A stretch of 41,502 nt of DNA. Origin: Synechococcales cyanobacterium M55_K2018_004. GTDB lineage: Bacteria; Cyanobacteriota; Cyanobacteriia; Elainellales; Elainellaceae. Positions 1-32,979 of this stretch are shown here, piece by piece. The translations under genes were made by a program, and so were the position numbers. The notes under the pieces were generated by a model, which worked only from the letters and a program-made list of their open reading frames with translations, ran no database searches and was not told where the DNA came from. Positions within the stretch are counted from its first letter, which is position 1. Every line of letters starts with the position of its first letter. The stretch spans positions 1 to 41,502 of the forward strand of contig DVEB01000333.1 in the NCBI GenBank assembly GCA_015295905.1. Direction: 5' to 3'.

Positions 1-75
1 CCCAAAACCCTTGCTGTTTCGTGCGCGTCGCGCACGGAACGGCAAGGGTTTCAGCTTATCCTGAATTCACATTAA
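1..75 (-). repeat. Double-hairpin element, copy A (cut by window edge)
   Basis: Left-truncated copy of the double-hairpin family, in inverted orientation. Visible are the end of hairpin 2, all of hairpin 1 (arms about 20 nt around GCGCG, two mismatches), the linker CAGCTTATCC and the terminal GAATTCACATTA, which is the reverse complement of the left terminus of the copies at 11546 and 32848. No coding capacity. Confidence 0.8.
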
Positions 76-7603: not shown

Positions 7604-7677
7604 AGCGGAGACGAATGTTTCCGTTCACTCCTCACACCACACTCCGCCTGGGCTCCGGTTCAGGCGGTTCCTCTTTC
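7604..7677 (+). ncRNA. yfr1: Small RNA Yfr1
   Basis: Trans-acting regulatory RNA found across cyanobacteria. The diagnostic unpaired core ACTCCTCACAC is at 7627-7637. It lies between a 5' stem-loop (CGGAGAC 7606-7612 with GTTTCCG 7617-7623, one G-U pair, GAAT loop) and a 3' terminator stem (CCGCCTG 7644-7650 with CAGGCGG 7661-7667) followed by a T-rich run. This two-hairpin layout and the place between guaB and trxA match the published description of Yfr1. The core motif binds the ribosome-binding regions of outer-membrane porin mRNAs in studied species. The 5' end is estimated from the -10 box. Confidence 0.92.
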
Positions 7678-8247: not shown

Positions 8248-8254
8248 AGTTTTT

Positions 8255-8378
8255 AACATGAATTCGGGATAAGTTGAGACCCTCGCTGTTTCGTGCGCGA
8301 CGCGCACGAAACAGCAAGGGTTTTGGGACACTGCGCGATATGTAGTGCCCCAAAACCCCTTTACGCCAAACTGACGTT
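8255..8378 (+). repeat. Double-hairpin element, copy B
   Basis: Between the convergent trxA and ndhL. Left terminus AACATGAATTCGGGATAAG, hairpin 1 at 8280-8320 (20-nt arms, one mismatch, centre A), decayed hairpin 2 at 8319-8357, right terminus ending CAAACTGACGTT. It matches the copies at 11546, 19638 and 32848. Confidence 0.85.
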
Positions 8379-8417
8379 GAATGACAGGTATTTTGCTGCT
8401 GAAAAACGACTCGGCCA

Positions 8418-11545: not shown

Positions 11546-11670
11546 TAACGTGAATTCGGGATCAGTTAAAACCCTTACTTTTCTGTGCGCGACGCGCACA
11601 GAAAAGTAAGGGTTTTGGGGCACCGCGCTAGGCGCGGTGCCCCAAAACCCGCTTAACCAGAACAGATATT
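11546..11670 (+). repeat. Double-hairpin element, copy C
   Basis: Between convergent murG and prmA. Left terminus TAACGTGAATTCGGGATCAG. Hairpin 1: perfect 24-bp arms 11568-11591 and 11593-11616 around one A. Hairpin 2: perfect 19-bp arms 11610-11628 and 11632-11650. The two stems share GGGTTTT. The right terminus is diverged. The stem 1 sequence differs from the other copies (CTTACTTTTCTG) on both arms. Confidence 0.9.
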
Positions 11671-14865: not shown

Positions 14866-14995
14866 TTAGCGTGAATTCGGGATAAGCTGAAACCCTTGAT
14901 GTTTCAGGTACGACGCACACGGAACATTAAGAACATTAAAGAGTTTGGGGCACCGCGCCCAGCGCGGTGCCCCAAACTCTTTAATGGCCCATAAG
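14866..14995 (+). repeat. Double-hairpin element, copy D
   Basis: Between the convergent small membrane-protein gene and the cysteine desulfurase. Left terminus TTAGCGTGAATTCGGGATAAG. Hairpin 1 is decayed. Hairpin 2 is perfect: 21-bp arms 14938-14958 and 14962-14982, reading AAAGAGTTTGGGG where other copies have GGGTTTTGGGG, with the matching change in the other arm. The right terminus is not clear. Confidence 0.85.
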
Positions 14996-16488: not shown

Positions 16489-19400
16489 GTGAAGCCCCCA
16501 ACTATGATCCAGCCATCTACCCGCCCACCCACTCCTGAAGAAGACGGCAATGTCACAGGCTTACGGTTGGCAGATATCCTCGGCCTCCCCCAGCCGTTGC
16601 AAACCCTAATGAACTGGATGTTGCGACGCAAAACCGTGACCGTTGCTGAGGCCGCTGCCCATTGCAATCAGAGCGAGTCTGAAATGGAAGCAATGCTCCA
16701 GCAATTGGTGGAGCGGCACTTCGTAAAGCAGGTGACGCTGGATGGGGCTGTTCGCTACGAGGTGCGGCTGGCACACAAATCAAACCGCCGGATGCCGAAG
16801 GACATCTGGAAGGTGCTCAACCTCCAGAATGAGGCGGCCAATGTCTTTATTTCCTACTCTCGCCGCAACAAGGAATTTGTGCGATCGCTTGCCTTCTCAT
16901 TGCAGAAGCGGGGACGGGAAGTGTGGGTCGATTGGGAGAGCATTCCCTTCGGCACCGACTGGTGGGAAGAGATCAAACAGGGCATCGAGCTAGCCGATTG
17001 CTTTATTTTCGTCATCAGCACTGCCTCAGTTAGCTCGGAGGTCTGTGCCCGTGAACTGGCCCACGCGCTGGCAAACCAGAAACGTATCCTACCCGTGGTG
17101 TATGAGGAAGTTCCTCCCCCGCAGGTGCCGCCGGAACTCAGCAAACTCAACTGGGTCTTTCTTCGCAGGCAAGATGACTTTGACCAGGGGTTTCGCAGCC
17201 TAATCCATGCACTGGACACCGACCTTGCCTACGTGCGGAACCACACTCGTTTGCTGGTGCGTGCCAACGAATGGAAGAATCAGCACGGTGACACTAGTTT
17301 GCTCCTGCGTGGCCGTGAACTGGCAGAAGCCCGCCGCTGGCTGAGCGAAGGGGAAGCCAAAGAACCGCGGCCCCACCAAGTTCAGAAGGAGTACATCTGG
17401 TCATCCTACAATGCAGAACTGGCAGCACAACAGGCCGAGTTGGACCAGCAGCGGCAGGGCATCCGGCGGCAACGGATCTGGCTGGGGCTGGTGGCAGCAG
17501 CGTCTAGTCTGGCGGTGGCGTTTGGCATTGGCTCCTATGTGCAATACCGTAGAGCAGTCGAGAGTCGAGCGATCGCTGAAGATTTGCGTGTCCTGGCAGA
17601 ACGAGAACGCCTGGGTGCTTTAACGGAAACGGCAGCAGCTTTGTTTCAGTCGGGGCAAATCTTTGAGTCCCTGCTCAAGAGTGTGAAGGCGGGGGTTGGC
17701 TTGCAGCAAGCAGCCGGGGCCAACGATGTCCCCGAACTGAGGGCAAGGGTGATCACGGCTCTACAGCAATCGATCTTCTGGGTGCGAGAGCGCAACCAAC
17801 TGGAGGACCACACGGGCATTGTCTGGGACACGGCCTTCAGCCCCGATGGCGTCAAGATCGCCTCTGCCAGCGCGGATGGCAGTGCCAAAATTTGGGGCAC
17901 CGATGGCACCCTGCTGACCACAGTGCGCGTCCCCAATGCCCAGGTACAGGGGGTAGTTTTCTCTCCAGACAGCCGTATTTTCGCCACGGCTGCAACGGAT
18001 GGCACAATTCGCCTATGGAACCTGGGTGGGACGGCCATTCGCACCATCCAACACCCAAGCGGCCCCGTCTATGCGATCGCCATTTCACCCGACGGTAGCA
18101 CCCTGGCCGCTGCCTACGAAGATGGTGCCGTTCGCCTGTGGCGGCGGGATGGCACCCTAGTCAGCACGCTGGATCGCCACATTGCCGCCGTGCGCGATGT
18201 CGTCTTTAGCCCCGATGGTGAACTGCTGGCCTCAGCCGCAGATGATGGCACGATTCGCCTCTGGCAGGCAGATGGCACATTTCTCAAAACCTTGCGAGGA
18301 CACACCGCCAAGGTGGCCAGTGTGCAGTTTAGCCCCGACGGGCAGTTTCTCGTCTCCGCTAGTTCCGACTATACGGTTCGCTTGTGGCAGCGGGATGGCA
18401 CTGCTGTTCGTATCATCAAAGCCCACGATTACGCAGTCTACGACGCCAGGTTTAGCCCTGATGGGCAGGTGATTGCCTCGGCAGGGTTGGACAAAACAAT
18501 TCGGTTGTGGCGACCGGATGGGACTCTGCTCAGCAGCTTAGAAGGGCACACTTCCCAAGTTCGTAGCCTGAGCTTCAGCCCTAATGGGCAACGGCTGGCC
18601 TCTGGTAGTGGCGATCGCACCATCAAACTCTGGCAATTGCACCGTCCCCTCGTTGAAACCTTACAGCAGCACCGTGCCCAGGTCTACGATGTAAGGTTCT
18701 CTGCCGATGGACAGACCGTGGCGACAGCCAGTGCCGACTTTGAGGTCAAACTCTGGCGGCGAGACGGCACCCCCCTGGCCGCCCGGCGCGGACACACTGC
18801 CCCGGTCTGGGCTGTCGCCTTTAGTCCTGATGGAAAACAGATCGCCGCTGCCAGTTCTGACCGCACGATTAAACTTTGGGACCACCATGGCAATTTATTG
18901 AACACGCTAGTGGGCCATGGTGCCCCGGTCAAGGATGTTGCCTTCAGCCCGGATGGCAAGCTGATCGCCTCTGCCAGCGAAGACCGCACAGTTAAGTTGT
19001 GGCAACGAGACGGGAGGCTACTCCACACCCTCCCTGGTCACGCTCAGGGTGTCCTCAGTGTCACCTTTAGCCCCAATAGTCAGACGCTGGTGAGTACTAG
19101 TTGGGACAATAGCGCCATGCTCTGGGATGTGCAAGGGCATTTGCTGCACACCTTGCAGGGGCATAGCGGTTGGGTCTACAGTGCGGCCTTTAGCCCCGAT
19201 GGTCAAACCATTGCCACGGCTAGCTTCGACAACACCGTGCGGCTCTGGCAACCCGATGGAACCTTGCTGCAAATTCTGGAGGGGCACCACGATGGCGTGG
19301 TTGCTGTGCGCTTCAGCACCCAGGGCAATATGATTGCCACAGGCAGCTTTGACCACACCATCAAGCTGTGGCGCCCCGATGGCAGACTGATTACGACACT

Positions 19401-19635
19401 GCGGGGACACTCCGGACGGGTCAACGCCGTTGAGTTTAGCCAGGATGGACACCTGCTGGCCACCGCCAGCGACGATCGCACAGTTCTGCTCTGGCACCTG
19501 GATCAGATGGATGACCTTGATCATCTGCTGACCCTGGGCTGTGACTGGCTACAGGACTATCTCAAGACCAACCGCCCCCTGCCACAGGGCGATCGCTCCC
19601 TCTGTCAGGACATTCCTCCCCCAGCAACACCCTAA
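16489..19635 (+). CDS. wHTH-TIR-TM-WD40 repeat protein
   Basis: A 1048-residue multidomain protein. Residues ~24-110 look like a winged helix; ~116-245 are a TIR domain (box 1 NVFISYSRRNKEFV, then WVDWESIPFGTDWWEEI, and Glu189 in SEVCAREL at the position of the catalytic Glu of NAD-cleaving TIRs). A charged segment leads to a membrane helix (331-352). From 441 to 1014 there are 14 WD40 repeats, each exactly 41 residues, ending in (I/V)(K/R)LW: enough for two seven-bladed propellers. TIR plus propeller architecture is typical of cyanobacterial signalling or cell-suicide proteins; the function is unproven. GTG start at 16489, ATG at 16504 equally possible. The element E starts 2 nt after the stop. 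Confidence 0.9.
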   Translation: MKPPTMIQPSTRPPTPEEDGNVTGLRLADILGLPQPLQTLMNWMLRRKTVTVAEAAAHCNQSESEMEAMLQQLVERHFVKQVTLDGAVRYEVRLAHKSNRRMPKDIWKVLNLQNEAANVFISYSRRNKEFVRSLAFSLQKRGREVWVDWESIPFGTDWWEEIKQGIELADCFIFVISTASVSSEVCARELAHALANQKRILPVVYEEVPPPQVPPELSKLNWVFLRRQDDFDQGFRSLIHALDTDLAYVRNHTRLLVRANEWKNQHGDTSLLLRGRELAEARRWLSEGEAKEPRPHQVQKEYIWSSYNAELAAQQAELDQQRQGIRRQRIWLGLVAAASSLAVAFGIGSYVQYRRAVESRAIAEDLRVLAERERLGALTETAAALFQSGQIFESLLKSVKAGVGLQQAAGANDVPELRARVITALQQSIFWVRERNQLEDHTGIVWDTAFSPDGVKIASASADGSAKIWGTDGTLLTTVRVPNAQVQGVVFSPDSRIFATAATDGTIRLWNLGGTAIRTIQHPSGPVYAIAISPDGSTLAAAYEDGAVRLWRRDGTLVSTLDRHIAAVRDVVFSPDGELLASAADDGTIRLWQADGTFLKTLRGHTAKVASVQFSPDGQFLVSASSDYTVRLWQRDGTAVRIIKAHDYAVYDARFSPDGQVIASAGLDKTIRLWRPDGTLLSSLEGHTSQVRSLSFSPNGQRLASGSGDRTIKLWQLHRPLVETLQQHRAQVYDVRFSADGQTVATASADFEVKLWRRDGTPLAARRGHTAPVWAVAFSPDGKQIAAASSDRTIKLWDHHGNLLNTLVGHGAPVKDVAFSPDGKLIASASEDRTVKLWQRDGRLLHTLPGHAQGVLSVTFSPNSQTLVSTSWDNSAMLWDVQGHLLHTLQGHSGWVYSAAFSPDGQTIATASFDNTVRLWQPDGTLLQILEGHHDGVVAVRFSTQGNMIATGSFDHTIKLWRPDGRLITTLRGHSGRVNAVEFSQDGHLLATASDDRTVLLWHLDQMDDLDHLLTLGCDWLQDYLKTNRPLPQGDRSLCQDIPPPATP

Positions 19636-19637
19636 AC

Positions 19638-19772
19638 AACGTCAGTTCGGATTAAGAGGGTTTTGGGGCACCGCGCCTGGCGCGGTGCCCCAAAACCCTT
19701 GCTGTTCTGTGCGCGGCGCGCACAGAACAGCAAGGGTTTCAGCGTGTAGCGCCATACCCCGAATTCACATTA
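19638..19772 (-). repeat. Double-hairpin element, copy E
   Basis: Inverted copy that fills the whole gap between the convergent TIR-WD40 and LOG genes. Right terminus AACGTCAGTTCGGATTAAG, hairpin 2 with perfect 20-bp arms (19658-19677, 19679-19698), hairpin 1 with perfect 20-bp arms (19696-19715, 19717-19736), and left terminus GAATTCACATTA. The TAA stop of the LOG gene (19770-19772) is inside the terminus. Between hairpin 1 and the left terminus the linker is replaced by AGCGTGTAGCGCCATA. Confidence 0.92.
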
Positions 19773-22884: not shown

Positions 22885-22957
22885 GGCTCAGTAGCTCAGT
22901 GGTTAGAGCAGGGGACTCATAAGCCCAAGGTCGCAGGTTCAAATCCCGCCTGAGCCA
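22885..22957 (+). tRNA. tRNA-Met (anticodon CAU)
   Basis: A 73-nt cloverleaf: acceptor GGCTCAG/CTGAGCC, D-arm TAGCTCAGTGGTTAGAGCA, anticodon loop CTCATAA giving CAU, and T-arm GCAGG TTCAAAT CCCGC. No encoded CCA. The missing initiator features favour elongator Met. The CAU of tRNA-Ile2 cannot be excluded by eye. The T stem has an A-C mismatch, and the first and last pairs of the anticodon stem look non-canonical. Confidence 0.88.
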
Positions 22958-25086: not shown

Positions 25087-28000
25087 TCAAATCACGATGA
25101 AATTCGCAGCACTGAGGGCCGCACGATTTTGCAGAACGGCAATCTGGATCGGCGCAATGCTGCCATTGCCATCGGGGTCAAAAAACAGCGCACCGGTAGA
25201 GCGGTTATAGATCAGGCGGTCATCCCCATCTGAGGCTCTACTCCCCAAACGAAATTGATTCGCTTGCAAACGCCCTGTACGGATGAAAGTCTCAAAGCCT
25301 GTGCGGCTAAACAGGATGCGATCCTGAGTGGGGTCAAAATCCGTGATGCGATCGCTCCCAGCCCCCGGAGCCGCAGACAGAACAAAGGAATCTTGCCCCA
25401 GTCCTCCCGTTAGCACATCATTCCCCTGACCACCGTCCAGCCTATCTGCACCCCGTCCACCCAGCAGTCGATCATCCCCTGCTTCCCCAAACAAGCGATC
25501 TCTGCCCGCATTTCCAGCCAAGGTATTGTTCGCTGCATTGCCAATTAGGGTGTTAGCCAGGTTATTGCCCCGACCTACAACAGCACCATTCAGCAACACC
25601 AGGTTTTCTAGGTTTGCCCCCAAGGTGTAGTCGATCGCGCTCCTGACTGTATCAATGCCCTGGTTCAACTGTTCGACAATCACATCGGAGGGGCTGTCAA
25701 CGTCATAGGTATCGTTGCCCAGCCCTCCAATCATGCGATCGCTGCCTAGCCCCCCTACGAGCAGGTCATTACCGCCGTTGCCGACCAGTTCATCATCACC
25801 CGCCAGCCCAAACAGGGTATCGTCGCCGCTCCCCCCCGCCAGATAATCTCTGACTGTCGGATTATTGCTGCCAGTCATCGTGGCAGTCCCGGCGAACTGC
25901 GAGAAGTTGAACCGCTCAAAGTTGATCACTGTCGTGCCTGCCAGCACGCCCCCGACTTGGCTATTGCTGTCCACATTCACCGTGACGTGGCCCGTACCCG
26001 CGATCAGCGTCAGCGTATCAATGCCGCTGCCGCCATCAATATAGTCCTGCTGGAGCAAGTGTTGAGTCAAGGAAAAGAGGATATCGTCACCTGCGTGCAG
26101 TCGCACTAGGTCAAATTCTAGGGTGGTAGCAGCTACCTGGTCGTTGCCAGGGGTGCCATTGATGGTGTTGGCAGGCAAGAAGGACAGAGTCGTCGTAGCA
26201 ATTGCGCTGTTATTGGCACCATCGTTGGCGAAAAACAGGATCTGGCGGGGGGTGGGGTTGGGCACGAGGGCCACGTTTTGATAGGTGACCGTTCGCAACA
26301 CCTGGAGGTAGGTTTCCAAGGGGGCCGTGCCCGTCAGTAGCAAGGTACCACTATCGGCAGAGTAGGCTGCTAAGATTGGGGTTCCCGCAGTATTGGCCGC
26401 CAGGATCTCAGCGCTACCATCCCGGACATTAGAGATGACTACCGCAAAGGATGTCACTTGGAACCCACTAGTGCCAGTCAGGGTGGCGGCGCTCCCCACC
26501 AGTGGAATTGGCAGCCCCAAAATGCCGCTGGCGGTGGAGTTGATCCCCTCTGCGCTGCCATTCAGGTCAATCACTGGAATGGTGCTGGTTGGAGGGGGCG
26601 TATCGTTCACATCCTGGACGGCGATCGCAAAGTCGCGCTCAAGCGAGAGACCACTGCGATCTGTCGTCCGCACCCGGATTTGATAACTAGACTTGGCCTC
26701 AAAGTCAAACACTGCGGCGGTGCGGAGTTGATTGCCGACAATCGTAAAGGCAGTGTGATCGGTGGAGCCGTCAATTGGCACTAGGGTATAGGTAAAGGTA
26801 TCGCCCAAGTCGGGATCTGTCGTGGCAAAGGAACCAACGAAAGTATTGGTGGGAAGGTTTTCCAGGACGGTGTTGCCATTGAGGGTAAGGTCGCTGGGGG
26901 CTTCGTTGATATCAGTGACTGTGAGGGTCAGCGATCGCTCAAAACTCAGTCCCCCTTGGTCAACCGTGCGGACGCGAATGCTATAGCTCGATTTCGTCTC
27001 AAAATCGGGAGAACTGAGGATCCGCAGTTGGCCATTATCGATGCGGAAAATCCCGTTGTCAGTCGCCCCTGCCCCTTCCACCAAGCTGTAGGTAAAGGTA
27101 TCGCCGGGGTTGGGGTCAATGCTGCTGAAACTGCCCACCACACTGTCTGCAGCCAGATTTTCTGGGATGGACGTCTCGCTAAACCGCAGATCTGTGGGGG
27201 CATCGTTGCCATCCAACACGGTGATGTTGAAGATCTGATCCAAGGAAGCTCCCGCCTGGTCTGTAGTCCGCACCCGGATGGAGTGGATGGAGCGAGTCTC
27301 GAAGTCGAGCGGCTGGGCAAGGCGCAGTTCATTGCCAACAATCGTGAAGAAGGTGTTGCCTGAATCGCCAAAACCAAAGACCAATCGATAGGTAAAACTA
27401 TCGCCCATGTCGGGGTCATTGGTGGTAAAGGTGCCGATAGTCGTCCCGACTGTGGCATCTTCAGAGATGCTGCTGTTATCTAAGCTGAGACCCACAGGGG
27501 GACGGTTGGCCTGAACGACGGTGATGGTAAAGTCCTGCTCAAACGTGAGATTCCCCTGATCGGTGGTCTGAATGCGAATGGTGTAGCTGGACTGGAGCGC
27601 CGGATTGGGAGGGCTGATCAGGCGTAGCTCTGTGCCATTAATTGCAAACGCACTGTTGTCTGGCAGACCGCCCACCAGTTGATAGGTAAAGGTATCGACG
27701 GCATCGGGGTCAACGGTGCTGAGGATCCCCACAACCGAATTAGCAGGAGCGATCGCACTGACCGTGGTGTTACTCAGATTCACCCCGGTCGGTGCTTCGT
27801 TGAGATCATTGATGGCAATGGTAAACGTCCGCTCAGTGGCAAGCCCTCCTCGATCAGTCGCCACGACCCGGACGGTGTAGCTGGCCTTCTGCTCGTAATT
27901 GGGAGAGACATTCAGCCGCAACTGATTGGTGTTAACGATGCTAAAGACACTGTTATCATTCAGACCACCATCAGGCAGGGTGTAGGTGATCACGTCTCCC

Positions 28001-31000
28001 GCGTCGGGATCTGTGACCGTCAGTATCCCAACAACGGTATTTGCAGCACTGTTTTCATCTAACTCTAAATTGCTCAGCGTTAAATTAGTCGGTGCTTCAT
28101 TCAAGTCATTGACAGCAATGACGAAATCTTGTTCAAAGGAACGATTTGTCCTGTCTGTCGTACGAATGCGAACTGTGTAGCTACTCTTCTGTTCAAAATT
28201 GGCAGACTGCCTGAGGCGCAGTTCATTCACATTGGTGAGGCTAAACGCATCACTGTCGTTTACCCCAGGGATTGAGATCAGCGTGTAGATAAACTGCTCG
28301 TTAGCATCTGCATCGGTGGTGCTAAGCAAGCCAACCAGGGCATTCTCTCCCGCATTTTCGTCGATCGATTCGCGGCTCAGGGTAATCGCCGTGGGTGCAT
28401 TCTCCACATCCTGAACCGCAATGGTGAAGTCCCGAATGGTGGACAGATTGTTGCGATCGCTCGCCTGCACACGGATGGTGTAACTGGTGCGATCGCTGAG
28501 ACTGGGAACCACCTGAAGCAGGAGGCGGTTGCCCTCGATACTGAAGGCAGCATTGTCGGGCAGTGAGTTGGGCACCAAGGAGTAACTAATCGTATCCCCA
28601 GCGTCCGGGTCAACGGCGCTGAAGGTGCCCACTTCAGTCCCGATCGCTGCTCCCTCGTTGACACTGGTTCCGGTCAATTGCAGATTGGTGGGCGCTTCAT
28701 TCACATCATTGACGATGATGGTGAAGAGTCGGGTAATTGCATTACTGCCATCAAAACTGCGAATTTCAACGGTGTAGCTGTTTTTCTGCTCAAAATCGGG
28801 AGAGCTGCGGAAGCGCAGTTGATTGCCGACAATCTCAAACGCTTGGTCATCTGTGGACCCCGCAATCGGCACCAAGCTGTAGGTAAAGCTGTTGTTCTGA
28901 TCGGGATCGACGGTGCTGAGGGTGCCTGCCACTAAATCGGTCGTATTTTCGTTCAGGCTGTTGGGGTTGCGGGTAAAAATCAGGTCCGTTGGCGGCTCGT
29001 TGACATCGATCACAGTGATGGTAAAACGTTGGGTGATGGCGTTATCGCCATCGGAGCTACGCACCTCAATGGTGTAGGAGTCTTGGGCCTCAAAGTCGGG
29101 GGCGGTGCGGAAGCGCAATTGGTTGCCAACAATCTCAAACGCCTGGTCATCGGTTGAGCCTGCAATGGGGACCAGCGTGTAGACAAAGTTGGTGCTGTCG
29201 GGATCCGTAGTGCTAAAGGTGCCCACCAGCAGATTGGTGGCATTTTCGGCGATCGCCTGATTACTCAGCGAAATGGCCGTCGGCGGATCATTCACCACAT
29301 CCACATTTAGGGTGAAGATCCGTTCGATGGTGTTGTTGCCGCCATCCCTGACCCGCACCCGAATGCTGTAGCTTGGTCTGTTAACCGGGTCAATGTCTTC
29401 CTGAATTTGCAGTTGATTACTGACAATACGGAAGCGGTTGTTATCCGTATCACCCTCACCAGCGACCAATTCATAGGTGAAGGTGTCATTAAGATCGGGG
29501 TCATCGGTACTGAAGCGACCGATCGTGTCTCCAGCGCGAGTGTTTTCCTCGATGCTGGTGTCATCCAGCGTCAGGTCGAGGGGGGTTTCGTTGATGTCGT
29601 TGACGGCAATGGTGAACGCTTTGGTGGTGGTCAGCCCACCTTGGTCACGACTGCGGACTTGAATCGTGTAGGAATTTTTGACCTCAAAGTTAGGCGCATT
29701 GTTCAGGCGCAATTCTCCCTGACTGTTGAGGCTGAAGGCGGCAAAATCGCCCGTCTGGAGGAGTTCGTAGGTAAAGCTGTCGCCGCGATCGGGGTCTAGG
29801 GTACTGAAGCTGCCCACCAGCAAGTCGGTAGCATTTTCGTCAATCTGGTTGTTGCTGAGGATAATATTGGTGGGCGCTTCGTTGACATCCTGAACTGTAA
29901 TCGTAAAGTCGCGCTCGATAGTGTTGACCCCATCGTTGCTGCGTATCCGCACCGTGTAGGCATCTTGCGCCTCAAAGTCGGGAGAGCTGCGGAAGCGCAG
30001 TTGATTGCCGACAATCTCAAACGCTTGGTCATCTGTGGACCCCGCAATCGGCACCAAGCTGTAGGTAAAGCTGTTGTTCTGATCGGGATCGACGGTGCTG
30101 AGGGTGCCTGCCACTAAATCGGTCGTATTTTCGTTCAGGCTGTTGGGGTTGCGGGTAAAAATCAGGTCCGTTGGCGGCTCGTTGACATCGGTGATGGTGA
30201 TCGTGAAGCGTTGGGTAATGGGGGTATCACCGCGATCGCTACTGCGCACCTCAATGGTGTAGGACGTTTTGGTCTCAAAGTCAGGTGCTTGGTCGGCCTT
30301 GAACCGGAGTTGGTTACCAACAATCTCAAATGCCTGGTCATCCGTGGACCCTGCAATTGGCACCAGTTCATAAGTAAAAACTGCATTGCTATCGGGGTCT
30401 ACGGTACTGAGAATACCAACCTCCAGGGTATTTTCAGCAACGGTGGTGTTGCTGAGGTCAATTCGGCTGGAGGGCAAGTTGCGATCAAGGACGGTGATCG
30501 TAAAGCTGCGGTCGAGTTGGTTGCCCGCGCTGTCTGTGACCCGCAAACCAACTAAAAAGCTCTGGTTCGTGGAATAGTTGGGAGAACTGATCAGACGGAG
30601 TTCATTGCTATTGACAATTGTGAAGGCGCTATTATTGCCAAATCCGGGGATTAGGCTGAAGGTCAAGTCGCGCGGAAGATCATCAACATCCACCGCGCTG
30701 ATCGTGCCAATAATCAGCGCATCGCCAGTGGCCCCATCCTCAACTTCCAGGCTACCGCTCAGGTTTAGCGCGGTCGGTGCTTCATTGACATTGACGATTT
30801 CGATGGTAAAGGTCTGCTCAAAGGACAACCCCCCCAAGTCGGTTGTGCGAACTCGGACTGAGTAGCTAGAGCGCGTCTCAAAATCCAAAACAACGGTATC
30901 TTTGAAGCGAAGTTGATTGTTGACAATCACAAAACTAGCGTTGTCCAGATCGTTGCCCACCAGTTCGTAGATAAAATCTAGATCTCCGTCTGGATCGGTG

Positions 31001-32373
31001 GTACTCAAGTCTCCGACGACTGCGCCTGTACCCGCATCCTCGCGCACTAAAGTGTTGCTCAGGCTGAGACCATTGGGAGCGCGGTTTGGGGCAAGGCCAA
31101 ACCGTTGGGCATAGACTCCACCATCAGAGTCATCTGGCCCCGATCCCGACCAGACAATCACATAATTGCCATCACTGCCAGTGGCGATCGCTGCATTTGC
31201 CTGATTATCTAGGGTGTAGGCCGTACCTCGATTGACTAGGTAGTCTTCCGTCCCCATCGGATTCCCCAACCGATTAAAGCGGCGAGAGTAGATATCTTCC
31301 CCCGTGGTAGGACTGCTGCCTGTCCAGGTGACCACAAAACCGCCATCGGGCAGAAACGCCACACGAGAATTTCGCTGGTTCAAACTTGTGGTCACATTCA
31401 CCAGCTTTGGCTCATCTGCCTGAAGCTGATTGTTACTGTCGTAGAAGAAACGCCGGACAAAGACATCATCGCCAGTGTTGATCGGGTCAGTGCTGGTCCA
31501 GGTGACGACAAAATTTCCCGCATTGTCAATGGCGACATGGGGTGCCCCCTGCACTCCAGTGGTCGTTGTATTCACCAGCGTGTCGGGCCTGGTGGTGTCA
31601 CCCACGGGAACTAACTGCGGCGTACTGCCCGACACTTGCAGCTTAAACCGTCGGTAGTAGATGCCATTCCCACTACCATCAGGCCCCGTCCAGACAACAA
31701 CAATATCGCCCTGGTCGTTCATGGCGATTGAGGAATTTCTCTGGTCGCCTAACCGCGTTAAGTTGACCGGAATTTCAGCGGTCTGCTGGATTTCGCCCTG
31801 GTTGTTGTAGGTATAAGCCCGAATAAAGATATCGAAGCGGTAAGGGTCGAAAGTGTCTGGGTCTTCATCGAGGCTAAAGCTGCTGTAGCTGCTGACAAAC
31901 CAGCCCTGATTGTTGATGGCAACACTAGGCTCAAACTGCTCCAGCAGGGTTGCATCATTGATCCGGATCTCCTGAGCACCAGGCTGCAAAACATTGTTTT
32001 GATCCAGGTAGTAGAGCCGAGCATAGACACCGCTAAGAGAACCATCCTGGCCAGAGCTACTCGTCCAGGCCACGACAAATTCACCGCGGCTGTTCATGCT
32101 GATGGCAGGCTTGAGTTGGTTGCCTGGGGCAGCCGCATTATTGACCAGACGATCAACATTGCTGGGATTGCCTGCCAGGTCGATGGCCTGACCATTCGAG
32201 TCGAAGCGTCGCAGGAAGACTCCCTGCCCGGCTGTGTCTTGCCCGGTGAAGACAACGACGAAGTTGCCGCTGCCGTCTATGGCGATTGCCTGTAGTGCAT
32301 CTTCAAACGTCGTTTGCAGATCGGCTGTTTCAGCGTTGACAAGCAGGGTTGAGCCGAGGCGAGTGGGTTCCAT
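25087..32373 (-). CDS. Giant RTX adhesin with cadherin-like repeats
   Basis: A 2428-residue secreted protein. Residues ~25-428 contain seven repeats with GNFVVxW text, probably a seven-bladed propeller. About 430-1925 are 15 cadherin-like repeats of ~100 residues, each with xENxxxGxxVG, STxDPDxGDxFTY, FExxSSYxIRVRxxD and a DxNEAPT linker that would bind Ca2+. After a ~250-residue spacer come RTX nonapeptides (GGSGDDTLFGLAGDDELVG and later sets, ~2180-2330) and a C-terminal region of the type used for type I secretion. There is no N-terminal signal peptide, which fits that route, but no T1SS genes are here. Probably a cell-surface or matrix adhesin. ATG at 32373 preferred over TTG at 32412. 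Two 213-bp stretches inside are identical. Confidence 0.9.
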   Translation of the reverse strand: MEPTRLGSTLLVNAETADLQTTFEDALQAIAIDGSGNFVVVFTGQDTAGQGVFLRRFDSNGQAIDLAGNPSNVDRLVNNAAAPGNQLKPAISMNSRGEFVVAWTSSSGQDGSLSGVYARLYYLDQNNVLQPGAQEIRINDATLLEQFEPSVAINNQGWFVSSYSSFSLDEDPDTFDPYRFDIFIRAYTYNNQGEIQQTAEIPVNLTRLGDQRNSSIAMNDQGDIVVVWTGPDGSGNGIYYRRFKLQVSGSTPQLVPVGDTTRPDTLVNTTTTGVQGAPHVAIDNAGNFVVTWTSTDPINTGDDVFVRRFFYDSNNQLQADEPKLVNVTTSLNQRNSRVAFLPDGGFVVTWTGSSPTTGEDIYSRRFNRLGNPMGTEDYLVNRGTAYTLDNQANAAIATGSDGNYVIVWSGSGPDDSDGGVYAQRFGLAPNRAPNGLSLSNTLVREDAGTGAVVGDLSTTDPDGDLDFIYELVGNDLDNASFVIVNNQLRFKDTVVLDFETRSSYSVRVRTTDLGGLSFEQTFTIEIVNVNEAPTALNLSGSLEVEDGATGDALIIGTISAVDVDDLPRDLTFSLIPGFGNNSAFTIVNSNELRLISSPNYSTNQSFLVGLRVTDSAGNQLDRSFTITVLDRNLPSSRIDLSNTTVAENTLEVGILSTVDPDSNAVFTYELVPIAGSTDDQAFEIVGNQLRFKADQAPDFETKTSYTIEVRSSDRGDTPITQRFTITITDVNEPPTDLIFTRNPNSLNENTTDLVAGTLSTVDPDQNNSFTYSLVPIAGSTDDQAFEIVGNQLRFRSSPDFEAQDAYTVRIRSNDGVNTIERDFTITVQDVNEAPTNIILSNNQIDENATDLLVGSFSTLDPDRGDSFTYELLQTGDFAAFSLNSQGELRLNNAPNFEVKNSYTIQVRSRDQGGLTTTKAFTIAVNDINETPLDLTLDDTSIEENTRAGDTIGRFSTDDPDLNDTFTYELVAGEGDTDNNRFRIVSNQLQIQEDIDPVNRPSYSIRVRVRDGGNNTIERIFTLNVDVVNDPPTAISLSNQAIAENATNLLVGTFSTTDPDSTNFVYTLVPIAGSTDDQAFEIVGNQLRFRTAPDFEAQDSYTIEVRSSDGDNAITQRFTITVIDVNEPPTDLIFTRNPNSLNENTTDLVAGTLSTVDPDQNNSFTYSLVPIAGSTDDQAFEIVGNQLRFRSSPDFEQKNSYTVEIRSFDGSNAITRLFTIIVNDVNEAPTNLQLTGTSVNEGAAIGTEVGTFSAVDPDAGDTISYSLVPNSLPDNAAFSIEGNRLLLQVVPSLSDRTSYTIRVQASDRNNLSTIRDFTIAVQDVENAPTAITLSRESIDENAGENALVGLLSTTDADANEQFIYTLISIPGVNDSDAFSLTNVNELRLRQSANFEQKSSYTVRIRTTDRTNRSFEQDFVIAVNDLNEAPTNLTLSNLELDENSAANTVVGILTVTDPDAGDVITYTLPDGGLNDNSVFSIVNTNQLRLNVSPNYEQKASYTVRVVATDRGGLATERTFTIAINDLNEAPTGVNLSNTTVSAIAPANSVVGILSTVDPDAVDTFTYQLVGGLPDNSAFAINGTELRLISPPNPALQSSYTIRIQTTDQGNLTFEQDFTITVVQANRPPVGLSLDNSSISEDATVGTTIGTFTTNDPDMGDSFTYRLVFGFGDSGNTFFTIVGNELRLAQPLDFETRSIHSIRVRTTDQAGASLDQIFNITVLDGNDAPTDLRFSETSIPENLAADSVVGSFSSIDPNPGDTFTYSLVEGAGATDNGIFRIDNGQLRILSSPDFETKSSYSIRVRTVDQGGLSFERSLTLTVTDINEAPSDLTLNGNTVLENLPTNTFVGSFATTDPDLGDTFTYTLVPIDGSTDHTAFTIVGNQLRTAAVFDFEAKSSYQIRVRTTDRSGLSLERDFAIAVQDVNDTPPPTSTIPVIDLNGSAEGINSTASGILGLPIPLVGSAATLTGTSGFQVTSFAVVISNVRDGSAEILAANTAGTPILAAYSADSGTLLLTGTAPLETYLQVLRTVTYQNVALVPNPTPRQILFFANDGANNSAIATTTLSFLPANTINGTPGNDQVAATTLEFDLVRLHAGDDILFSLTQHLLQQDYIDGGSGIDTLTLIAGTGHVTVNVDSNSQVGGVLAGTTVINFERFNFSQFAGTATMTGSNNPTVRDYLAGGSGDDTLFGLAGDDELVGNGGNDLLVGGLGSDRMIGGLGNDTYDVDSPSDVIVEQLNQGIDTVRSAIDYTLGANLENLVLLNGAVVGRGNNLANTLIGNAANNTLAGNAGRDRLFGEAGDDRLLGGRGADRLDGGQGNDVLTGGLGQDSFVLSAAPGAGSDRITDFDPTQDRILFSRTGFETFIRTGRLQANQFRLGSRASDGDDRLIYNRSTGALFFDPDGNGSIAPIQIAVLQNRAALSAANFIVI
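28796..29008 (-). repeat. 213-bp internal repeat of the adhesin, copy 1
   Basis: Identical base for base to 29978-30190, by direct reading. It spans the end of one cadherin-like repeat and the start of the next in coding direction. Confidence 0.92.
29978..30190 (-). repeat. 213-bp internal repeat of the adhesin, copy 2
   Basis: Identical to 28796-29008, offset 1182 bp (394 codons), so any exchange between the copies keeps the frame. It covers the LVPIAGSTDDQAFEIVGNQL and NPNSLNENTTDLVAGTLSTV text of both repeats. Confidence 0.92.
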
Positions 32374-32847
32374 AGGTGTGCAGTGGCGAGTGGGTCGAAG
32401 AGTTGGCGACAAAAATGAGCAAACGAAGATTGGAGATGAGTGACGGGAGCGATCGCCCTGCTACCCACCCCTAGTGAGACCAAGAGGATATCCCTGCTGA
32501 GGCTACCCCAAAACTGGGCACTGTCGATCAGTAGAGTCCTGGTTTTCCCTCAGTTGCGGTTAGTTGAAGCGGCTGCCCAGGGGAACACACAAGCAAAAAT
32601 TAACTCAATGTTACGCAAGGCACCGCCCTCGTCAATCCGAAACCTTGCCGAAATATGGACGCAAGCAAAATATTGCTCTGGAAAAATCCGCCATTTTGCG
32701 GAAGGCTAGGCAGTTTTTCGCGGGTAAGTTTGACACTCCCGAAAAGCCACTCAAAGTCGCAAAGTCGCCATTTTTATGACGTAAAACGCCTGCTCAGCAC
32801 ACGTTTTACGTCACAAAAACCTGACCCACTATAGCGGTTTTCATCGT
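32374..32847. other. Adhesin upstream region
   Basis: 474 bp with no gene. The adhesin promoter should be here. It contains a perfect 12-bp inverted repeat with a 13-nt loop at 32777-32813. Short ORFs on the plus strand have no recognisable features. Confidence 0.55.
32777..32813. promoter_or_regulatory. Perfect inverted repeat upstream of the adhesin
   Basis: TGACGTAAAACG and CGTTTTACGTCA around CCTGCTCAGCACA. T and A tracts flank it on the outside. It may be a terminator for the upstream ABC operon or an operator for the adhesin. Only the symmetry is certain. Confidence 0.5.
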
Positions 32848-32979
32848 TAACGTGAATTCAGGATAAGCTGAAACCCTTGCTGTTCCGTGCGCGGCGCGCA
32901 CGGAACAGCAAGGGTTTTGGGGGGGCACCGCGCCGGGCGCGGTGCCCCCCCAAAACCTGCTTAATCCGAACTGGCGTTA
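32848..32979 (+). repeat. Double-hairpin element, copy F
   Basis: The best-preserved copy. Left terminus TAACGTGAATTCAGGATAAG; hairpin 1 with perfect 23-bp arms (32871-32893, 32895-32917); hairpin 2 with perfect 22-bp arms (32913-32934, 32936-32957); right terminus CTTAATCCGAACTGGCGTTA. Hairpin 2 has seven G on one arm and seven C on the other where other copies have four. It ends one base before the stop codon of the DUF4340 gene. Confidence 0.93.

What the first reader, a model, noticed from the sequence alone, without database searches (positions are those of the whole stretch)
11610..11616. The two hairpins compete for one shared segment
In copies C, E and F the base of hairpin 1 (AAACCC...GGGTTT) and the base of hairpin 2 (GGGTTTT...AAAACCC) use the same GGGTTTT. 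Full pairing of both is impossible, giving an AAACCC-GGGTTT-AAACCC three-way arrangement like a switch or a migrating cruciform.
Basis: seen in the sequence. Interest (0 to 1): 0.5.

Follow-up and report, generated by a model that had tools for sequence, protein, structure and literature searches.

The report
Two hairpins sharing one mobile-element segment
A short non-coding, transposon-like element, present in hundreds of copies in this cyanobacterium, carries two DNA hairpins that both need the same six bases, and the mutations in its copies suggest that those bases have paired now with one partner, now with the other.

Summary
Window 11610-11616 (GGGTTTT) closes hairpin 1 (AAACCC, 11569-11574) and also hairpin 2 (AAAACCC, 11644-11650). 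The segment lies in a ~124-bp MITE-like element with terminal inverted repeats and 6-7 bp target duplications; its ends match those of 968-992 bp elements, one checked as IS982 family. 254 copies were found in 1.10 Mb sampled (about 1,157 extrapolated). The AAACCC-GGGTTT-AAACCC arrangement also occurs in Kaiparowitsia implicata, and as GCCC-GGGC-GCCC in a third genus.

Competition is supported by calculation and by mutation patterns. On the consensus, every division of the shared bases between the hairpins lies within 1.5 kcal/mol. In 164 copies the shared segment co-varies with both partners, the partners little with each other. Shared bases next to hairpin 1 tend to follow hairpin 1's partner, those next to hairpin 2 the other (p = 0.0009, noticed before tested; the 38 later copies alone are not significant).

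A regulatory switch is not supported: no orientation bias, no strand-specific wobble signature overall, though hairpin 1's core shows one. Loop inversions and excess double changes favour template-switch correction in DNA, a known process. The overlap makes this element an unusual natural record of which pairing formed.

The parts
11547..11670 (+). Full MITE-like element (copy C), two hairpins between terminal inverted repeats
   Evidence: Aligned with 164 full copies of the same genome; boundaries from the consensus and target duplications of the family
11547..11565 (+). Left terminal inverted repeat (family consensus AACGTGAATTCGGGATAAG)
   Evidence: Consensus; closely similar ends on 968-992 bp elements, one protein of which is IS982 family
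11569..11574 (+). Segment A, AAACCC: outer 5' base of hairpin 1
   Evidence: Sequence; covariation with B
11569..11615 (+). Hairpin 1 (23-bp arms, one-base centre at 11592)
   Evidence: Sequence; covariation
11610..11616 (+). Segment B, GGGTTTT: shared by both hairpins (first six bases fully shared)
   Evidence: Sequence; co-changes with A and with A'
11610..11650 (+). Hairpin 2
   Evidence: Sequence; covariation
11645..11650 (+). Segment A' (AAACCC; with 11644, AAAACCC): outer 3' base of hairpin 2
   Evidence: Sequence; covariation with B
11652..11670 (+). Right terminal inverted repeat, degenerate in this copy
   Evidence: Alignment
1..75 (-). Copy A, cut by the window start
   Evidence: blastn
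8253..8386 (+). Copy B (stretch printed; blastn match 8253-8358)
14866..14985 (+). Copy D (stretch printed; blastn match 14866-14976); hairpin 1 right arm lost, hairpin 2 arms extended with flank sequence
19630..19760 (-). Copy E (stretch printed; blastn match 19642-19739)
32847..32975 (+). Copy F (stretch printed; blastn match 32847-32971); three extra G and three extra C in the two arms of hairpin 2

Best explanation
The segment belongs to a non-autonomous IS982-type transposable element (MITE) made of two abutting palindromes between terminal inverted repeats. The 3' base of palindrome 1 (B, GGGTTT) is also the 5' base of palindrome 2, so A, B and A' form a three-segment system in which B can pair with A or with A' at nearly equal predicted energy. 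When the element is single-stranded, most likely during replication, B pairs with whichever partner the junction position allows, and DNA synthesis sometimes copies one arm from the other (template switching). This keeps the arms complementary, flips the loops, and links mutations in B to A or to A' according to which hairpin each base of B abuts. Shown: the element, its ends and target duplications, the shared segment and its presence in three genera, the flat predicted energies, covariation of B with both partners with a gradient, and loop inversions. Inferred: movement by an IS982 transposase, single-stranded DNA as the state, template switching as the process. No function for the host or for the element is shown.
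For: MITE: target duplications of 6 bp or more in 15 of 38 own copies, 44 of 54 Kaiparowitsia copies and 22 of 23 G003 copies with readable ends (shuffled controls 1.2, 3.4 and 5.0% at 5 bp or more); similar ends bound 968-992 bp elements in four genomes, and the one protein scanned scores 243.9 bits to NF033520 IS982 (cut-off 130). Competition: energies for 0-6 shared bases in hairpin 1 span 1.5 (own consensus) and 1.1 kcal/mol (Kaiparowitsia consensus) with DNA parameters, 0.8 with RNA. On a tree built without the 18 tested columns: joint changes A with B 33 (31 complementary; null mean 12.9, max 24 of 1000), B with A' 44 (42 complementary; null 13.5, max 25), A with A' 16 (null 11.6, max 20; 9 of the 16 also with B). 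Shuffles within divergence strata: A-B 47 and B-A' 51, 0 of 1000 as high; A-A' 27, 9 of 1000 as high. Negative control: the terminal repeats, which are not hairpin arms, show 26 joint changes against a null of 25.1 (126 copies). Gradient: in the TTT half of B (next to hairpin 2) 20 changes shared with A' only and 5 with A only; in the GGG half (next to hairpin 1) 10 and 20; p = 0.0009 by copies, 0.0033 by branches; p 0.000009-0.016 on dropping any one triple, same direction in 89 younger and 75 older copies. Template switching: changed loop centres are the complement far more often than changed terminal-repeat sites (own 107 of 161 against 166 of 833; Kaiparowitsia 26 of 35 against 13 of 64); the G003 hairpin 2 loop is GAA in 18 (one with a stem mismatch), TTC in 5 and GAC in 1 of 24; in 63 young Kaiparowitsia copies, over 37 stem pairs, 65 two-sided cells (18 distinct, 17 Watson-Crick) and 35 one-sided cells (19 distinct), where the terminal-repeat rate predicts about 66 one-sided cells.
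Against: The gradient was noticed in the first 126 copies; the 38 copies added later do not show it significantly alone (3:1 versus 2:5, p = 0.24). Many B changes have no partner change (61 of 129 branch changes). Covariation of the hairpin 2 core is weaker (29 joint, 18 complementary, null 14.3, max 24). The hairpin 1 core has more G-T than A-C one-sided pairs in the own genome (161:106, p = 0.0009; 136:95, p = 0.008 without the innermost pair), as selection on an RNA would give; Kaiparowitsia does not show it once that pair is left out (5:9). Cells in these counts are related copies, not independent events, and the tree rests on 106 columns. A with A' is somewhat above its stratified null. 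Selection for a folded single strand would give much of the same covariation. No IS982 transposase over the cut-off was found in the own genome. No experiment shows either fold.
Confidence: 0.6

Rival explanations
1. Selection, not mutation bias, keeps the arms complementary: the folded single strand (DNA) is needed for transposition or protects the element, and compensatory changes are selected in source copies that then amplify.
For: Covariation and recurrent stem haplotypes among copies; the A-B-A' arrangement is present in three genera with different hairpin sequences.
Against: Loop inversions bring no gain in pairing yet complementary changes are the commonest class at both loop centres of the own genome and at the Kaiparowitsia hairpin 2 loop (at its hairpin 1 loop transitions are 9 against 8); double changes in near-identical young copies outnumber what single-site rates allow.
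Confidence: 0.2
2. Families of copies descend from a few source elements that already differed, and recombination among copies shuffles the variants; no pairing process is acting now.
For: Some variants recur in many copies (for example C-G at pair 29/61 in 16 of 67 Kaiparowitsia copies).
Against: Coupling goes through B and only weakly between A and A'; the positional gradient; both hairpin 2 loop states occur within 3 of the 5 Kaiparowitsia stem haplotypes seen at least twice (T 14/A 8, T 3/A 2, T 3/A 2).
Confidence: 0.12
3. An RNA switch or bidirectional terminator: transcripts through the element choose between the two hairpins and so influence neighbouring genes.
For: Copies lie mostly between long reading frames (17 of 254 inside one) and are enriched between convergent ones (78 of 194 against 31.1 expected by length); G-T excess in the hairpin 1 core.
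Against: Orientation is random relative to tandem genes (50:41); no overall G-T excess; by eye no long T-run follows either stem in the consensus (the terminator scan was not run); placement between convergent genes can also come from selection against harmful insertions, as the shortage between divergent genes suggests (25 against 54.5).
Confidence: 0.06

Closest known systems
IS982-family MITEs (for example the Cardinium MITECca01, PMC9769881; listing and passages seen)
   Same: Non-coding, ends like those of an IS982-family element, multiplied in the genome
   Different: About 124 bp instead of about 240 bp and built of two abutting palindromes; the passages seen describe no overlapping hairpins
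Template-switch maintained hairpins (Monttinen and Loytynoja 2022, PMC8794818; abstract, outline and passages seen)
   Same: Compensatory double changes and loop inversions in hairpin stems explained by one replication event
   Different: The passages seen treat stems in which an arm has one partner; here one segment has two competing partners, so the partner used can be read out. Loop inversions were rare in their data and are common here
Bacterial MITEs with stem-loop transcripts (Correia, RUP, ERIC, Nezha; passages of PMC10969869 and PMC3733652 seen)
   Same: Short repeats between genes with terminal repeats and strong folds
   Different: No shared-segment arrangement in the passages seen; the Nezha paper itself was not read

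Membership tests
IS982-derived MITE | Terminal inverted repeats matching an IS982-family element | tested here: met
   The pattern AC(G/C)T(G/C)A(A/G)TTCGGG(A/T)TAAG, one mismatch allowed, bounds both the MITE and 968-992 bp elements (L129-L132); only the L131 protein was scanned: 243.9 bits to NF033520
IS982-derived MITE | Target-site duplication | tested here: met
   6 bp or more in 15/38 own, 44/54 Kaiparowitsia and 22/23 G003 copies with readable ends
IS982-derived MITE | Too short for a transposase gene; autonomous partner available | tested here: inconclusive
   About 124 bp; of 5 genomes searched, G227 and G163 have an IS982 transposase over the cut-off, own genome (26.5 bits), G003 (23.7 bits) and G009 (none) do not; the own assembly is in 362 contigs
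Template-switch corrected hairpin | Complementary double changes in excess of single-site rates | tested here: met
   young Kaiparowitsia copies; own hairpin 1 core 68 joint, 57 complementary, null 20.1; hairpin 2 core weaker, 29 joint, 18 complementary, null 14.3
Template-switch corrected hairpin | Loop inversion | tested here: met
RNA switch with mutually exclusive helices | Fixed orientation to the regulated gene and strand-specific wobble tolerance | tested here: not met
   50 same against 41 opposite; G-T 377 against A-C 340; the hairpin 1 core alone shows an excess
RNA switch with mutually exclusive helices | Ligand- or condition-dependent exchange | not testable with these tools
   Needs probing or expression data
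REP element moved by a RAYT (IS200-like) | No terminal inverted repeats with target duplications (recalled) | tested here: not met
   Both are present; RAYT genes were not searched for

The most novel reading that the evidence does not exclude
The shared segment is a natural recorder of a migrating three-strand junction in living cells: which partner goes with each base of B tells where the junction stood, so hundreds of copies give a per-base occupancy map of a DNA branch point in vivo, and can separate template-driven from selection-driven compensatory change.
Probability: 0.4. Interest if true: 0.7.

Novelty: new variant of a known kind. Interest (0 to 1): 0.5.

Why it matters
Compensatory changes in hairpins are commonly taken as evidence of a selected structure, and template switching is the rival account. 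One segment with two competing partners offers a test: a single fixed structure predicts one dominant partner, whereas pairing at a migrating junction predicts a gradient of partner use, and a gradient is what the copies suggest. It also warns that covariation in repeated palindromes need not mean an RNA function.

Tried and rejected
A functional RNA switch was tested by orientation and by wobble asymmetry and is not supported overall. Rfam at gathering thresholds gave no match at the element. The G009 element has similar ends, but the folds of the copies that could be folded show several smaller hairpins instead. Exact-pattern hits in Thermoflexia (L254, L294) and Chryseobacterium (L285) look unrelated on reading. 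The weak IS982-like hit in the own genome (26.5 bits, cut-off 130) was not pursued. The terminator scan was not run. Literature: eight searches; no title or abstract opening in their listings describes an overlapping-hairpin MITE; only open-licence papers are held, few were opened, and absence from print is not claimed.

Rows dropped: own genome 265 non-redundant hits, of which 164 counted as full (model start at or before 28, end at or after 100, not cut by a stretch end); cells with gaps left out; target duplications read only in copies with matching ends, 38 of the own full copies, 54 of 67 and 23 of 24; Kaiparowitsia 90 candidates, 67 unique by flanks, 63 called young (4 or fewer differences in terminal repeats and spacers); G003 24 copies fetched of 34 matches. 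Most Kaiparowitsia loci came from a pattern that fixes A, B and most of A', so they were not used for the coupling test. One search is the analysis on 126 copies, another the one on 164.

Full report
The observation. GGGTTTT stands at 11610-11616; AAACCC at 11569-11574 is its partner in hairpin 1 and AAAACCC at 11644-11650 its partner in hairpin 2. Six bases are needed by both, so both stems cannot be complete at once.

What it is. The two hairpins fill a ~124-bp element with terminal inverted repeats. A scan of 1,100,395 bases of the same genome (window included) found 254 copies, about 1,157 when scaled to 5.01 Mb; 164 of 265 non-redundant hits in all own-genome loci were full. Target duplications of 6-9 bp, mostly 6-7, are found in 15 of 38 own copies with readable ends, 44 of 54 in Kaiparowitsia (6-8 bp) and 22 of 23 in G003 (6-7 bp), against 1.2, 3.4 and 5.0% in shuffled controls at 5 bp or more. 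Elements of 968-992 bp in four other cyanobacterial genomes have similar ends, and the protein of the one that I scanned scores 243.9 bits to the IS982 transposase model (cut-off 130). No such transposase over the cut-off was found in the own genome, so the copies may be orphans; the 362-contig assembly could also lack it. That an IS982 transposase moves the element is inferred.

Relatives. G227, several of whose contig lengths equal those of Kaiparowitsia implicata GSE-PSE-MK54-09C, and the Kaiparowitsia records themselves have near-identical copies with other hairpin sequences but the same AAACCC-GGGTTT-AAACCC. G003, another genus placed in the same family by the tool, has GCCC-GGGC-GCCC.

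Do the hairpins compete? On the own-genome consensus, moving the six shared bases one by one from hairpin 2 to hairpin 1 changes the computed energy by at most 1.5 kcal/mol with DNA and 0.8 with RNA parameters; on the Kaiparowitsia consensus 1.1 and 0.8 (coaxial stacking is not modelled). On a tree built without the 18 tested columns, A and B change on the same branch 33 times (31 complementary; null mean 12.9, maximum 24 of 1000), B and A' 44 times (42; null 13.5, maximum 25), and A and A', which do not pair with each other, 16 times (null 11.6, maximum 20), 9 of these together with B. Shuffling within divergence strata agrees, with A-A' somewhat above its null (27 against 18.2; 9 of 1000 as high). 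In the earlier set of 126 copies the terminal repeats, a control, show no excess (26 against 25.1), the hairpin 1 core a strong one (68 against 20.1) and the hairpin 2 core a weaker one (29 against 14.3).

The gradient. In the half of B next to hairpin 2 (TTT), 20 copy-level changes are shared with A' alone and 5 with A alone; in the half next to hairpin 1 (GGG), 10 and 20 (p = 0.0009; branches 23:6 and 12:18, p = 0.0033). It survives dropping any one triple (p from 0.000009 to 0.016) and points the same way in 89 younger (7:0, 3:7) and 75 older copies (13:5, 7:13). The 38 copies added last point the same way without significance (3:1, 2:5, p = 0.24). I noticed the gradient in the first 126 copies, so its p-value is not that of a planned test. 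Of 129 branch changes in B, 61 have no partner change. All three segments changed together also occur, for example AAAGCC-GGCTTT-AAAGCC in two Kaiparowitsia copies.

Which process? Three signs favour template-switch correction in DNA. Changed loop centres are the complement in 107 of 161 own cells against 166 of 833 at terminal-repeat sites, and in 26 of 35 against 13 of 64 in Kaiparowitsia. In G003 a three-base loop GAA appears as TTC in 5 of 24 copies. In 63 young Kaiparowitsia copies one-sided stem changes are fewer than expected (35 cells, about 66 expected) while two-sided ones abound (65 cells, 18 distinct, 17 of them Watson-Crick). Overall, G-T and A-C one-sided pairs are balanced in the own genome (377:340, p = 0.18), as expected if no one RNA strand is selected; but the hairpin 1 core is not (161:106, p = 0.0009; 136:95, p = 0.008 without the innermost pair), which Kaiparowitsia does not repeat once the innermost pair is left out (5:9). 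Template switching as a keeper of hairpins is described in PMC8794818 (abstract, outline and passages seen).

Function. Copies avoid long reading frames (17 of 254 inside; the frames cover 76.1% of the bases), sit between convergent frames more often than by length (78 of 194 against 31.1) and between divergent ones less often (25 against 54.5), with random orientation in tandem settings (50:41). Gene calls were simple long reading frames, the intergenic lengths include the copies themselves, and 43 copies had no neighbour on one side in their stretch. This fits insertions tolerated where they do least harm; a terminator role is open. No switch function is supported.

Window examples. Copy F has three extra G and three extra C placed symmetrically in the arms of hairpin 2. 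Copy D has lost hairpin 1's right arm, and its hairpin 2 stem runs on into sequence complementary to the right flank, which reads like one asymmetric template switch; this last is my reading by eye.

Noticed in passing
window 7605-7669: Yfr1 small RNA, 57.1 bits.
   Followed up: no
window 22885-22957: tRNA gene, 64.2 bits.
   Followed up: no
window 25087-32412: 2441-aa reading frame with about 300-bp internal repeats, two of them 90% identical.
   Followed up: no
window 16489-19635: 1048-aa reading frame with 123-bp repeats resembling WD repeats (the label is recalled).
   Followed up: no
G000 contigs C10, C44, C62, C83, C112, C138 and others: In the capped list a number of copies have an end motif within about 100 bases of a contig start, as if the assembly broke at these hairpins.
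   Followed up: no
L009 319-439 and 447-564: Two copies in the same orientation a few bases apart.
   Followed up: no
G009 loci L200-L207: A ~162-bp element with similar ends but several smaller hairpins.
   Followed up: partly
L254, L294 (Thermoflexia): A seemingly unrelated repeat in two contigs matches the same pattern.
   Followed up: partly
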